Below are positions 4,592 through 61,018 of a stretch of DNA of 64,000 nt, in pieces. Every line of letters begins with the position of its first letter. Position 1 is the first letter of the stretch. This DNA is from Candidatus Aenigmatarchaeota archaeon (GTDB taxonomy: Archaea; Aenigmatarchaeota; Aenigmatarchaeia; PWEA01; JACQIF01), in contig CP066684.1 in NCBI GenBank assembly GCA_016432325.1, positions 186,001 to 250,000 of the forward strand. The letters run 5' to 3'. A model generated the notes under the pieces. That model searched no databases, was not told where the DNA came from, and was given only the letters and a program-made list of their open reading frames with translations. The position numbers and the translations under genes are program-made.

Positions 4592-4700
4592 TGGAGCGGG
4601 GGTTGGGAATTGCACCCAAGTAGATCCGCTTTCCGGCATGTCGGAAAATCGCGTTTCCGCACGCCTGCAGGCGGACGCATAGCTGCTCTGCCACCCCCGC
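4592..4700 (-). tRNA. tRNA-Cys(GCA) with a 34-nt anticodon-loop intron
   Basis: Acceptor arms GCGGGGG/CCCCCGC, discriminator U and an encoded CCA (4594-4592). Anticodon stem TCCGC (4675-4671) pairs with GCGGA (4629-4625). Loop CTGCA-G then A gives anticodon GCA at 4668-4666. The intron is about 4664-4631, at canonical position 37/38. The T-arm TTGGG/CCCAA encloses TGCAATT, so position 55 is G rather than U, and the D-loop has an unusual AG at the G18G19 position. It starts 1 nt after the cysS stop codon on the same strand, so the two are probably one transcript. Confidence 0.85.
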
Positions 4701-4701
4701 G

Positions 4702-6177
4702 TCACTTGATGAAACGCCACCTCGGGCCTTCCGACGTATCTTGGACTTCAATTCCGTACTGGTCCAAGAGCCTCTTCCGCAGCTCGTCCGCGGCCGTGAA
4801 GTCCTTCTGCTTCCTCATCTCTTCCCTCTGTTCGATAAGCTTCTTAACCTCGGCGGGTAGAGGGCGTTCCTCTTTTCTGAGTACGGCAAGGACACTGTCA
4901 AAGTCGTGCATTGTGTCGAGTACTCGCTGCGCGTCGCGGGAAGCCATCGCCTTCGTTTCGAGCAGCTTGTTGATGGAACCCACGAAGTGATGCAGAGATG
5001 CCCACATCTCCGGCACGTTAAGGTCATCGTCCATCGTGCGCTCGAACTCTTTGCGCACCTCGGCGACCAGCTTGCGTACGGCTGTACTGCTCTTCCCGTT
5101 CTTGTGACGTGCGAGCCGATCCATGAACTCGTCGAGCTTGTCGAGCGTGTTCGCGGCGTTCTTCAGCGACTCCCAGCTGAAAAGCTGCTGCGTGCGATAG
5201 TGCGCGGTCAGGTAAAAAAACCTCAGCTGGCGCGGCGTGAACGTTTCGTCGATAACGCTCTGCAACCGCAGGAAGTTCCCTTTGGATTTTGCCATCTTCA
5301 AAGGCCGGGCCTTTGAAGTTTCCGACCAATTGTCGGAAATTTTTGTGTCGCTCACGTTCAGGAATTCGCAGTGGAACCAGTACTTGGCGAAAGGACGGCC
5401 TGTGGCCGCCTCGCTCTGCGCGATTTCATTCGTGTGGTGTACGGGTATGTGGTCTATGCCTCCGGCATGTACGTCGAGCGTGCGTCCCAGATACTTCATT
5501 GCCATCGCAGAGCACTCGATGTGCCAGCCGGGGAATCCTCGGCCCCAGGGCGAGTCCCATTCCATGTGGCGTAGCGTGCCCGCAGGAGTGAGTTTCCACA
5601 GCGCGAAGTCCGTGGCGTTGCGCTTGCCTGCCGTGACCTCGACGCGCGCGCCTGCCTTCAATCCTTCGATGTTCAGGCGCGCCAGCTTCCCGTAATCCTT
5701 GAGCCTGGACGTATCAAAGTAGACTCCATCGCGTATCTTGTATGTGTAACCCTTGCGTTCGAGAGTTCTGACGAGAGTAATCTGTTCACTTATGTGGTCT
5801 GTCGCGCGGCACCAGATGTCAGGCATGAGTGCGCCCAGAAGCTCCAAGTCGTTCTTGAAGACCTTCTCGTAAAACGCAGCAATATCCCAGGCGCTCTTAT
5901 GCTCGCGCTGCTCGGCGACTACCATCTTGTCCTCTCCCTGATCGGCGTCATCGGTCAGGTGCCCGACGTCCGTGACGTTCGTGACGTGCTTGACGCGGAA
6001 GCCCTTCCATAGCAAGTAGCGCTTCAGAAGGTCTTCGTTGACGTACGTTCGTAAATTCCCTATGTGCGCGTAGTCGTAGACCGTCGGACCGCACGTGTAC
6101 ATGCGCACGGTCTTCCCCTTCAACGGTTTGAAAATCTCTTTCTTGCGGGAGAGCGTGTTGTAAATCTTGAAAGCCAT
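4702..6177 (-). CDS. cysS: Cysteinyl-tRNA synthetase
   Basis: Class I synthetase of 491 aa that charges tRNA-Cys. It shows the N-terminal TCGPTVYDYAHIGN (HIGH motif and a zinc Cys), GFPGWHIECSAMA (zinc ligands) and MAKSKGN as the KMSKS loop. A GAGGTGGG Shine-Dalgarno-like stretch precedes the ATG, and a TTTATTTAG box lies further upstream. Oddity: an extra 15 residues (ISDNWSETSKARPLK) sit immediately before the KMSKS Met, encoded by two back-to-back palindromes (5296-5340). The cognate tRNA-Cys begins 1 nt downstream. Confidence 0.96.
   Translation of the reverse strand: MAFKIYNTLSRKKEIFKPLKGKTVRMYTCGPTVYDYAHIGNLRTYVNEDLLKRYLLWKGFRVKHVTNVTDVGHLTDDADQGEDKMVVAEQREHKSAWDIAAFYEKVFKNDLELLGALMPDIWCRATDHISEQITLVRTLERKGYTYKIRDGVYFDTSRLKDYGKLARLNIEGLKAGARVEVTAGKRNATDFALWKLTPAGTLRHMEWDSPWGRGFPGWHIECSAMAMKYLGRTLDVHAGGIDHIPVHHTNEIAQSEAATGRPFAKYWFHCEFLNVSDTKISDNWSETSKARPLKMAKSKGNFLRLQSVIDETFTPRQLRFFYLTAHYRTQQLFSWESLKNAANTLDKLDEFMDRLARHKNGKSSTAVRKLVAEVRKEFERTMDDDLNVPEMWASLHHFVGSINKLLETKAMASRDAQRVLDTMHDFDSVLAVLRKEERPLPAEVKKLIEQREEMRKQKDFTAADELRKRLLDQYGIEVQDTSEGPRWRFIK
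5296..5340. repeat. 45-bp palindromic in-frame insertion within cysS
   Basis: Two adjacent inverted repeats fill the segment. At 5296-5318, 11-bp arms CTTCAAAGGCC/GGCCTTTGAAG have a 1-nt spacer. At 5319-5339, 8-bp arms TTTCCGAC/GTCGGAAA have a 5-nt spacer. Together they correspond to the 15 residues present beyond the usual synthetase sequence, with Lys at both edges of the insertion. This resembles palindromic elements that insert in frame into genes. Part of the second palindrome (TTTCCGACA...CGGAAA) recurs in the tRNA-Cys intron. Confidence 0.75.
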
Positions 6178-9947: not shown

Positions 9948-10580
9948 TCAGTACTGCTCCTGCTTGACGACTTCTTCCTTCTGCTCGAGCCAGCGAGTCC
10001 ATTTATCATAGAATCGCTTTGCTATCTCCCTGCCTTTCTTTGACTTTATCTGCTTGTATTCGGCCTCGACCTTCTCGCGGCTCGTGTCTATCAGCATCTC
10101 CTTGGACTGTCCCATCCACAGGCCGACCTCGAACCATATGGGCAGGGTGTTTTCGAGGAACGCGATGCCGTCGGCTTCTACCAGAATCTGGACTTCCTTG
10201 GTGCCGCCTTTCTCGTGCAACTTGATGAACTTCTTCACCCTGTTTATGACGTCCGGCTTTACCTTCTGTTTCCTGAGGAAGTCGGCTGCGATTTCAGCGC
10301 TTTTGTCCGCGAGCGCGAGCTTGTCGAACTGCGGATAACGGTTGTTCTTTATGTACGCGCGGCCGATGTTGTGCAGGAGCGCCGCGACTTCAAGGGCCTC
10401 AGCGTCCATTCCCTTTTCCACGAGTTCTTTCACATGCTCCCTGCATTGCAGGTTGTGGCGGACCATGCCTTCTCCTATGACACGCGGTATCTTGGAGCGG
10501 AAGTCCGAGAACGAGTCGAGCATGAAGTTCTCTGCCTTCTGGACGAGCGCGCTGGACTTGACTACCGGCTTTGGAGGCAT
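9948..10580 (-). CDS. HD-domain-like protein with HD changed to HN
   Basis: 210 aa. Residues 40-140 follow the HD phosphohydrolase layout (first His in CREHV, then AALLHNIGRAY, later a helical segment with KLHEKGG). The normal His-Asp metal-binding doublet reads His-Asn. Many HD proteins act on nucleotides or phosphates; with the Asp lost it may be inactive or use a different metal arrangement. A Lys/Glu-rich C-terminus follows. Divergent from trmY. Confidence 0.7.
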   Translation of the reverse strand: MPPKPVVKSSALVQKAENFMLDSFSDFRSKIPRVIGEGMVRHNLQCREHVKELVEKGMDAEALEVAALLHNIGRAYIKNNRYPQFDKLALADKSAEIAADFLRKQKVKPDVINRVKKFIKLHEKGGTKEVQILVEADGIAFLENTLPIWFEVGLWMGQSKEMLIDTSREKVEAEYKQIKSKKGREIAKRFYDKWTRWLEQKEEVVKQEQY

Positions 10581-18220: not shown

Positions 18221-18404
18221 GGGGCCATAGGATAACCCGGCAGTCCTGCCGGCTCCAGTTGGCGCAACTGGCGCGCTGAGTCTCCGGACGATGACAAGGA
18301 AGATACCGGCTAGTCCCGGTTCAAACCGGGCTTTCTTTAAAAAGAAAGCACGGGTGCAAAGAAACTCCGCTTTCCAGCACATGAGAATCCGGGTGGCCCC
18401 ACCA
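18221..18404 (+). tRNA. tRNA-Trp(CCA) with two introns (anticodon loop and T-loop)
   Basis: Acceptor GGGGCCA (18221-18227) pairs with TGGCCCC (18394-18400), then A and an encoded CCA. The D-stem GGAT/GTCC is intact, with GG in its loop. Anticodon stem GCCGG (18248-18252) pairs with CCGGC (18306-18310), and anticodon CCA is at 18255-18257. Intron 1 is about 18259-18304 (46 nt), at the position where many archaeal tRNA-Trp genes have one. T-stem CCCGG (18315-18319) pairs with CCGGG (18389-18393). The T-loop is broken by a 62-nt intron (about 18324-18385), and joining gives TTCAAAT. A GGTATTTAAG box lies about 27 bp upstream. Confidence 0.88.
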
Positions 18405-25185: not shown

Positions 25186-25466
25186 GCGGCGATAGTCTAG
25201 TGGTTTCCGCGGCAGCTTCATGGCGTACACCGCCCCGCGGAAATTGTAGGACCTTAGCCTTCCATGGCGCCTTTTTGAGCACGTCCGCTCAAAAACCCGC
25301 GGGAATGCACGGAACAAAGTTCCGGCACATCGGGAGCACACTCCCGAATAAAATCCGCTGGCGCACGATGAAAGCTAATGACCCGGGTTCGAACAAGTGG
25401 CACGTGCGCGCGCCCCTTGAACCCCTACGACGTAGGCGTTTCATGAAAATCCCGGTCGCCGCACCA
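25186..25466 (+). tRNA. tRNA-Gly(UCC) with three introns
   Basis: Acceptor GCGGCGA (25186-25192) pairs with TCGCCGC (25456-25462), then A and an encoded CCA. D-stem GTCT (25195-25198) pairs with GGAC (25249-25252), with a 42-nt intron (about 25206-25247) in the D-loop. Anticodon stem TTAGC (25254-25258) pairs with GCTAA (25374-25378); anticodon TCC is at 25261-25263; a 108-nt intron (25265-25372) follows base 37. T-stem CCGGG (25383-25387) pairs with CCCGG (25451-25455), with a 56-nt T-loop intron (about 25392-25447). Splicing all three yields a normal 75-76 nt tRNA with T-loop TTCGAAT. A TTTTTATTC box lies about 30 bp upstream. Confidence 0.88.
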
Positions 25467-60640: not shown

Positions 60641-60828
60641 TTAACAGCAGTTTCAACGGTCTTCGAACAGCGATTCGAAGTTTTCGAACTTGGTTCGGAA
60701 ATCCTCTCGATGAAGTATGTGGTGTACCGAAACAAACCTTCGGTTTGAAAGGTCCTAGCTTAGAAATATGTGGTGGACCGAATGAAACTGCGGTTTCAAT
60801 AGTCATCTCGATGAAGTATTGGTGGACC
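60641..60828. repeat. 51-bp tandem repeats ending in the tRNA-Ala 3' terminus
   Basis: GTGGTGTACCGAA (60720), GTGGTGGACCGAA (60771) and TTGGTGGACC (60819) recur at about 51-bp steps. Each of the first two is followed by a palindrome: ACAAACC..GGTTTG and TGAAACTGCGGTTTCA (60783-60798). On the minus strand they end ...GGT(C/A)CACCA, the same as the last nine bases of tRNA-Ala. A half copy lies at 60645-60660. Related to the 26.4 kb repeat. Confidence 0.78.
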
Positions 60829-61018
60829 AGGCGCGATTGCCGTAGGGGTTCTAGGGTGCACGAAACGCGCTGCGTTTCGGCATACCGCGGTAGAGACCGC
60901 GTGCAGCGCAAATAACGCCACATGGGGTGCCCCTTTTTTGAACGCGCGACCTCCTGCATGCCATGCAGGCGTCATACCGTTGCGCTTTGAGCGCACTTCC
61001 GGGCTAGACTACTGGCCC
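60820..61018 (-). tRNA. tRNA-Ala(GGC) with D-loop and T-loop introns
   Basis: Acceptor GGGCCAG (61018-61012) pairs with CTGGTCC (60830-60824, one G-U), then A and an encoded CCA. The D-stem GTCT (61009-61006) pairs with TGAC (60974-60971, three pairs), with a 22-nt insertion (about 60998-60977) that folds as TGCGCT/GCGCA. Anticodon stem CCTGC/GCAGG is intact, with loop ATGGCAT, anticodon GGC at 60962-60960. T-stem GCGCG (60947-60943) pairs with CGCGC (60835-60831), with a 100-nt T-loop intron (about 60938-60839). Joining restores TTCAAAT. A CATTTAAG box is about 28 bp upstream. Confidence 0.85.

What the first reader, a model, noticed from the sequence alone, without database searches (positions are those of the whole stretch)
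5296..5340. 45-bp wholly palindromic insertion in frame next to the cysS KMSKS loop
Two abutting inverted repeats (11-bp and 8-bp arms) cover exactly the 15 codons that appear extra relative to the usual synthetase, ending at the Met of MAKSKGN, part of the ATP-binding signature loop. This is the hallmark of an in-frame palindromic element such as those known from Rickettsia, but inserted beside a catalytic loop in an essential archaeal enzyme. A similar hairpin occurs in the tRNA-Cys intron just downstream.
Basis: partly seen in the sequence, partly recalled or inferred. Interest (0 to 1): 0.8.

Follow-up and report, generated by a model that had tools for sequence, protein, structure and literature searches.

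The report
Mobile double-hairpin DNA in archaeal genes
A 45-base insert in the gene for an archaeon's cysteinyl-tRNA synthetase is one of several dozen copies of a tiny hairpin-forming DNA element that keeps landing in genes, including essential ones, without breaking the reading frame, a habit best known from Rickettsia bacteria.

Summary
Window 5296-5340 is exactly 15 extra codons in cysS: two abutting perfect hairpins (11-bp arms, 1-nt loop; 8-bp arms, 5-nt loop) between a Lys codon and the Met of MAKSKGN. The residues are absent from 21 fetched CysRS relatives, 25 CysRS of the same class, and the solved structures aligned. It is one copy of a dispersed family. A covariance model finds 33 distinct double-hairpin loci (type A, 41-50 bp) in this 875-kb genome and 24 hits in a draft of a sister species; in a 156-genome phylum scan only one other stray hit. 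Stems differ between copies mostly by changes on both sides. A second architecture (type B, hairpin-RCATGY-hairpin, about 30 loci) sits between genes, in apparent tRNA introns and in DNA polymerase B. Sister-species comparison gives filled and empty sites: PolB (reciprocal), ribosomal protein uL5, and one ORF twice. Inserts are 42-54 nt, always multiples of three, with no target-site duplication seen. So this is an in-frame palindromic element, Rickettsia-like in behaviour but not a member of the Rickettsia families. Splicing and bypassing are disfavoured; translation and mobility are inferred. The mobilising enzyme is unknown: no Y1 transposase, no reverse transcriptase.

The parts
5296..5340 (-). 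In-frame insert, 45 nt / 15 codons (ISDNWSETSKARPLK), a type A double-hairpin element; boundary ambiguous by 1 nt
   Evidence: model R1 hit 191296-191339, 56.2 bits, E 1.1e-11 (this copy was one of the ten used to build the model)
5296..5318 (.). Hairpin 1 of the element, CTTCAAAGGCC-G-GGCCTTTGAAG, 11-bp arms
5319..5339 (.). Hairpin 2 of the element, TTTCCGAC-CAATT-GTCGGAAA, 8-bp arms
4702..6177 (-). cysS, cysteinyl-tRNA synthetase, 491 aa, host gene
   Evidence: Pfam PF01406 E 2.3e-91; only CysRS match in the genome; fold matches 8qhp and 1u0b
5275..5295 (-). MAKSKGN, the KMSKS-type signature directly after the insert
   Evidence: sequence and alignment
60661..60701 (+). Second type A element in the window: CTTCGAACAGCGATTCGAAG + TTTTCGAACTTGGTTCGGAAA
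   Evidence: R1 hit 246661-246701, E 1.2e-10 (also a model member)
60856..60906 (-). Type B element inside a tRNA-like gene (apparent intron)
   Evidence: R2 hit 246856-246906, E 7e-6; tRNA context read by eye
25305..25351 (+). Short type B element in an apparent tRNA intron
   Evidence: R2 hit 211305-211351, E 8.6e-5; context read by eye
4592..4700 (-). tRNA-Cys(GCA) with a 34-nt anticodon-loop intron; the stretch 4612-4664 scores as a partial type B element
   Evidence: ARAGORN with introns; R2 hit E 1.3e-4; fold

Best explanation
The insert is an in-frame copy of a dispersed, very short, non-autonomous palindromic element made of two abutting hairpins (type A). SHOWN: copies with a common consensus, and stems that differ mostly by paired changes, lie at dozens of unrelated loci in this species and its congener; several sit inside protein genes; congener comparison gives filled and empty sites with inserts of 42-54 nt, all multiples of three, with no target-site duplication evident; type A copies are unusually free of stop codons. 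INFERRED: the element moves to new sites, probably as a folded single strand (hairpin ends, no target duplication); insertions into genes survive only where they keep frame and fall in a tolerant loop; the CysRS insert is translated as a floppy loop just before the KMSKS signature and tolerated. The mobilising enzyme is not identified; supply in trans by an unrecognised ssDNA recombinase, or replication-coupled copying, are the leading candidates.
For: Insert absent from CysRS of 25 same-class genomes, 21 fetched relatives and aligned solved structures. 42 abutting hairpin pairs against 2 in a shuffle. Covariance model: 33 distinct type A loci at E <= 1e-3 in this genome, 24 hits in the congener and 2 single hits in other genomes of the order, and only one of those two again in a 156-genome phylum scan at E <= 1e-4. 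Ten of 17 pairs show changes on both sides; 98.8% of cells paired against 83% in the letter-shuffle control, with only one G-U cell. PolB: the congener has a 16-aa type A insert where this genome is empty, and this genome has an 18-aa type B insert where the congener is empty. uL5: 16 aa present here, absent in the congener. A 275-aa ORF carries two hairpin-pair inserts of 45 and 42 nt where the congener's closely similar DNA has none. Other in-ORF copies: Rpo7, L7Ae, ScpA, LeuRS of the congener, ZIP transporter and others. 119 of 138 frames of type A copies open against about 51% for arm-shuffled hairpins. Model of CysRS: residues 281-289 pLDDT < 50 in an otherwise confident CysRS fold.
Against: No transposase is linked to the family: Y1_Tnp PF01797 absent and RVT_1 PF00078 absent. 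Copies were first collected as near-perfect hairpins, so the covariation count is biased upward. Translation, enzyme activity and current mobility are not shown. The congener's cysS is not in its draft, so the cysS empty site comes from more distant genomes. Element copies are related, so the six-frame openness is not many independent events.
Confidence: 0.88

Rival explanations
1. The 45 nt are a small archaeal mRNA intron cut out by the tRNA-splicing endonuclease at a bulge-helix-bulge motif, so the protein is of normal length.
For: The genome appears very rich in tRNA introns, its 16S rRNA has inserts in universally conserved spots, and type B elements seem to sit inside tRNA introns (by eye).
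Against: No bulge-helix-bulge arrangement at the cysS junctions under canonical or relaxed rules; the fold is two hairpins closed on themselves. All six inserts placed by comparison (cysS, PolB twice, uL5, one ORF twice) are multiples of three and stop-free, which splicing would not require. The scan used simple rules and also found no motif in the tRNA-Cys region, which does carry an intron, so its sensitivity is limited.
Confidence: 0.05
2. The ribosome skips the hairpin region (programmed bypassing, as with T4 gene 60 or the byp elements of yeast mitochondria), with similar Lys codons as take-off and landing sites.
For: Hairpins, a short gap, and Lys codons AAA before the insert and AAG at its end.
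Against: No stop codon in the gap and full frame preservation; in the six comparisons the lengths are always multiples of three. Bypassing would tolerate stops and any length.
Confidence: 0.03
3. The insert arose locally, by template switching or slippage that builds palindromes, and is not a mobile element.
For: Stems stay perfect while sequences differ, which palindrome-correcting replication errors can produce; no transposase was found.
Against: Copies at unrelated loci share a consensus well beyond being palindromic (CTTCGAAC..GTTCGAAG + TTTTCGAAC..GTTCGAAAA) and share the order of the two hairpins. Local origin does not give one family. It may still explain how the stems stay matched.
Confidence: 0.05
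4. The 15 residues are a functional extension of CysRS peculiar to this lineage, for example modulating the KMSKS loop or tRNA binding, and the palindromy is incidental.
For: Position next to a catalytic loop; the congener's cysS could not be checked.
Against: The DNA scores as a member of a family found in unrelated genes and in non-coding DNA, and the peptide resembles the inserts in Rpo7 (ISAQDAETSNAERLK) and ScpA (IESQDSKTSNDRHSK) rather than anything specific to a synthetase. Predicted disordered. Later recruitment to a function is not excluded.
Confidence: 0.06

Closest known systems
Rickettsia palindromic elements (RPE) and Wolbachia palindromic elements (WPE)
   Same: Dispersed palindromic DNA, in intergenic regions and also in frame inside many unrelated protein genes, including a DNA polymerase subunit and an aminoacyl-tRNA synthetase, at solvent-exposed sites (PMC3767692, PMC10969869).
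   Different: RPEs are 100-150 bp in bacteria; here 41-50 bp, two abutting hairpins, in an archaeal genus, with apparent presence in tRNA introns as well. No sequence relation was tested.
Double-hairpin elements / repetitive hairpin-forming elements of mitochondrial DNA (Allomyces, sponges, yeast GC clusters)
   Same: Short tandem hairpins, stems differing by complementary changes, found in rRNA and some coding genes as well as between genes, and, for Allomyces, lack of flanking target duplication (PMC2800124).
   Different: Known from organelles; for the fungal elements absence from structurally important parts of genes is reported, whereas here the element sits beside a catalytic signature and inside PolB.
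REP/BIME elements moved by RAYT (Y1) transposases
   Same: Palindromes of 20-40 bp, multicopy, often in pairs (PMC2817692, PMC3733652).
   Different: REPs are typically extragenic and tied to a Y1 transposase; none is found here, and copies lie inside genes.
Archaeal bulge-helix-bulge introns
   Same: Type B copies appear to lie inside tRNA introns in this genome.
   Different: No such motif at the cysS junctions; protein-gene inserts keep frame.

Membership tests
In-frame palindromic elements of the RPE/WPE kind (as a functional class) | Multiple dispersed palindromic copies in one genome | tested here: met
   33 distinct type A loci at E <= 1e-3; 42 hairpin pairs against 2 in a shuffle
In-frame palindromic elements of the RPE/WPE kind (as a functional class) | Inserted in pre-existing ORFs without breaking the frame | tested here: met
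   cysS, PolB, uL5 and a 275-aa ORF by comparison with genes lacking the insert
Rickettsia palindromic element families proper | Length about 100-150 bp | tested here: not met
   41-50 bp
Rickettsia palindromic element families proper | Sequence homology to the named RPE families | not tested
   no RPE sequences were compared
Mitochondrial double-hairpin elements | Two tandem hairpins per element | tested here: met
Mitochondrial double-hairpin elements | No target-site duplication | tested here: met
   none seen at PolB, uL5 and the two sites in the 618860 ORF (and reading of those sequences)
Mitochondrial double-hairpin elements | Residence in organelle DNA | tested here: not met
   single-contig 875-kb prokaryote genome with archaeal rRNA
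REP/RAYT system | Cognate Y1 (HUH) transposase in the genome | tested here: not met
   PF01797 absent, found in 5 control genomes; the genome is rated about 90% complete
REP/RAYT system | Restricted to extragenic DNA | tested here: not met
   copies inside ORFs
DDE-type MITE | Target-site duplication flanking the element | tested here: not met
   none seen at the congener empty sites
Archaeal BHB intron | Bulge-helix-bulge at the junctions | tested here: not met
   no hit at cysS, canonical or relaxed; simple scan of limited sensitivity
Bypassing element (byp) | Insert not translated | not testable with these tools
   needs proteomics; frame and length constraint argue against

The most novel reading that the evidence does not exclude
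One mobile double-hairpin system colonises every kind of gene in this archaeal genus: in tRNA (and perhaps rRNA) genes its copies are carried inside introns and spliced away, in protein genes they survive as translated in-frame peptides because the elements have evolved to be nearly stop-free in all six frames, and they spread as folded single strands without a classical transposase, while replication keeps correcting the hairpin arms to match.
Probability: 0.25. Interest if true: 0.87.

Novelty: new variant of a known kind. Interest (0 to 1): 0.73.

Why it matters
In-frame palindromic elements that add peptides to working proteins have been discussed mainly for Rickettsia and Wolbachia. An archaeal counterpart, with filled and empty sites between sister species inside DNA polymerase B and a ribosomal protein, would show that this route of protein change is not a quirk of one bacterial order and would give a clean comparative system for asking how such elements move and what they do to proteins. 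The combination with an apparently very intron-rich set of tRNA genes makes a link between hairpin elements and intron gain directly testable.

Tried and rejected
Exact and 3-mismatch pattern searches for the two palindromes looked almost negative and could have wrongly refuted the family, because copies differ by compensated changes; shorter gapped patterns revealed it. RAYT/REP origin: rejected for lack of Y1 transposase. Reverse-transcriptase-driven spread: no RVT_1. BHB intron scan: no hit. Deleting stretches around type B copies and running ARAGORN gave no tRNA, probably because these genes carry more than one intron, so the tRNA-intron placement of type B rests on reading the sequence by eye. 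The congener's CysRS could not be compared (no match in its draft). A scan of genome contigs for related CysRS found only distant, mostly bacterial relatives. Paper searches found no report of such elements in archaeal protein genes; only open-licence papers are held, so a report elsewhere may have been missed.

Full report
WHAT IS THERE. The cysS gene (4702-6177, minus strand, 491 aa) carries 15 codons, ISDNWSETSKARPLK, between FLNVSDTK and MAKSKGN. On the plus strand they are two perfect hairpins end to end: CTTCAAAGGCC-G-GGCCTTTGAAG (5296-5318) and TTTCCGAC-CAATT-GTCGGAAA (5319-5339), plus one base. The region folds into those two hairpins (z -3.2). The enzyme is otherwise normal: Pfam tRNA-synt_1e at 2.3e-91, the only CysRS match in the genome, KMSKS-like signature intact, and a model that matches solved CysRS (8qhp, 1u0b, 1li5).

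IS IT AN INSERTION. Yes. The 25 CysRS of the same class printed run straight from FLxVxGxK into M[SA]KSxGN. None of 21 more fetched relatives has the extra residues, nor have the two solved structures aligned. In a model made from the window protein and those relatives, residues 281-289 fall below pLDDT 50 while most of the surrounding domain is well above 80: a floppy loop just before the ATP-binding signature.

IT HAS RELATIVES IN THE GENOME. With up to three mismatches the palindromes barely match anything else. Searching the ends only, with free middles, gave other copies in which both arms had changed together, for instance CTTCAAACGCTCTGCGTTTGAAG directly followed by TTTCCGCATCTTGCGCGGAAA at 10279-10322. 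In 464 kb, 42 pairs of abutting hairpins with arms of 7 bp or more were found against 2 in a shuffle. Aligning ten copies, 10 of 17 stem pairs show changes on both sides, and only one cell is G-U. Since the copies were found as hairpins the pairing count is biased, but the shared consensus (CTTCGAAC..GTTCGAAG TTTTCGAAC..GTTCGAAAA) is not a consequence of that choice. A covariance model finds 33 distinct loci at E <= 1e-3 in this genome, the ten used to build it included. I call these type A. In the congener, a 73%-complete draft, it finds 24 hits; elsewhere in 60 relatives two single hits in the same order, of which the one in G010 reads as a real double hairpin. A scan of 156 genomes of the phylum at E <= 1e-4 gave only the two congeners and one single hit.

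A SECOND ARCHITECTURE. Type B is GTGYA-hairpin-RCATGY-hairpin-TRCAC, about 50-58 bp, at about 30 loci, in the congener, and in a diverged form in three genomes of another family of the class. Type A sits inside the type B spacer at several places (103689, 441671, 664157, 758971). By eye, several type B copies lie within tRNA genes, i.e. in introns (258395, 246856, 830614, 211305, 529501); a computed check did not succeed, probably because these genes have several introns.

EMPTY SITES BETWEEN SISTER SPECIES. The congener shares about 72% nucleotide identity in matching blocks. DNA polymerase B: the congener has a 16-residue type A insert, ISEPADVRNISNRGSK, after KLPG, where this genome runs straight on; this genome has an 18-residue type B insert further on, where the congener runs straight on. 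A solved archaeal family B polymerase lacks both. Ribosomal protein uL5: a 16-residue insert here, none in the congener. A 275-residue ORF at 618757-619581: two inserts of 45 and 42 nt here, none in the congener, in DNA that is otherwise closely similar. No target-site duplication is apparent at these sites. All inserts, cysS included, are multiples of three; under free lengths that has a chance of about 1.4e-3.

OTHER PROTEIN GENES. By codon statistics and Pfam, in-frame copies also lie in Rpo7 (C-terminal tail), L7Ae (N terminus), ScpA (C terminus), a ZIP transporter, a metallophosphoesterase and the congener's leucyl-tRNA synthetase (this last named from its sequence). Most type A copies in genes are read in the same orientation and frame: ISDNWSETSKARPLK, ISAQDAETSNAERLK, IFGRNPKTSNARRSK, IESQDSKTSNDRHSK, ISEQNVRNTSKEDLSK, ISEPADVRNISNRGSK, MFEPRGSNASNAGRSK. 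Type A copies are open in 119 of 138 frames, against about 51% for arm-shuffled hairpins; since copies are related this is a property of the family, not many independent facts.

HOW IT WORKS, AS FAR AS CAN BE SAID. Shown: a dispersed family, filled and empty sites, frame kept, a predicted loop. Inferred: mobility, translation, and tolerance by selection. Movement as a folded single strand fits hairpin ends without target duplication, but the best-known enzyme of that sort (Y1 transposase) is missing, and so is a reverse transcriptase. How stems stay matched while changing is open: selection for hairpins in the mobile form, or palindrome correction during replication.

ALTERNATIVES. An mRNA intron is disfavoured: no bulge-helix-bulge at the junctions (a simple scan of limited sensitivity) and lengths always multiples of three. 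Ribosomal bypassing is disfavoured on the same length argument and the absence of stops. Local palindrome formation does not explain the shared consensus. A lineage-specific functional loop remains possible as a later use of the insert.

AGAINST WHAT IS KNOWN. In behaviour this is closest to Rickettsia and Wolbachia palindromic elements, which are 100-150 bp and also occur in frame in polymerase and synthetase genes (PMC3767692, PMC10969869). In build it is closest to mitochondrial double-hairpin elements, for which complementary differences, presence in rRNA and coding genes and lack of flanking duplications are reported (PMC2800124). It fails the size test for the former and the residence test for the latter. 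I found no report of such elements in archaeal protein genes in the papers held.

Noticed in passing
662 kb of G000 (window included): ARAGORN finds one intronless tRNA gene and only five more when anticodon-loop introns are allowed: almost all tRNA genes of this genome seem to be interrupted by introns, often several and at unusual positions (by eye, e.g. a tRNA-Gly(CCC) near genome 758812 with a T-loop intron).
   Followed up: partly
L065:7095-9272 (genome 637095-639272): The 16S rRNA gene is 2178 long against a 1478-position model and has short hairpin-rich inserts in universally conserved stretches: 45 nt inside the 530 loop (GTGCCAGCCGC^..ACGGTAATAC) and about 43 nt at GAAA^..CTTAAGGGAATTGG, besides inserts of about 530 and 105 nt. 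They must be spliced out or strongly accommodated.
   Followed up: partly
window 18315-18370; genome 25921-25974, 630001-630051; congener C74:12128-12182: A further hairpin-bearing repeat, over 90% identical over about 50 nt between the two species (CCCGGTTCAAACCGGGCTTTCTTTAAAAAGAAAGC...), unusually well conserved for DNA that is otherwise about 72% identical.
   Followed up: no
genome 13806-13896, 273227, 370026, 448810, 607634: Five copies of a longer variant: a TTTAAAAC..GTTTTAAA hairpin or TATA-like stretch, then GTT, then CTTACGAAC..GTTCGTAAG and TTTGCGAAC..GTTCGCAAA, then TACCGCC or similar, seemingly between genes; may act as promoter or regulatory units.
   Followed up: no
L157-L175 (genomes G014, G038, G054): Type B-like double hairpins with other stem sequences (CAGAAAGC..GCTTTCTG) and an RCRYGY-like spacer recur in another family of the class, several times in nearly identical settings.
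   Followed up: partly
genome 862555-862625, 784474-784540 and 703833-703903: A three-hairpin composite (type B plus an adjoining CACRCTTTT..AAAAGYGTG hairpin) occurs in at least three places and in both orientations.
   Followed up: no
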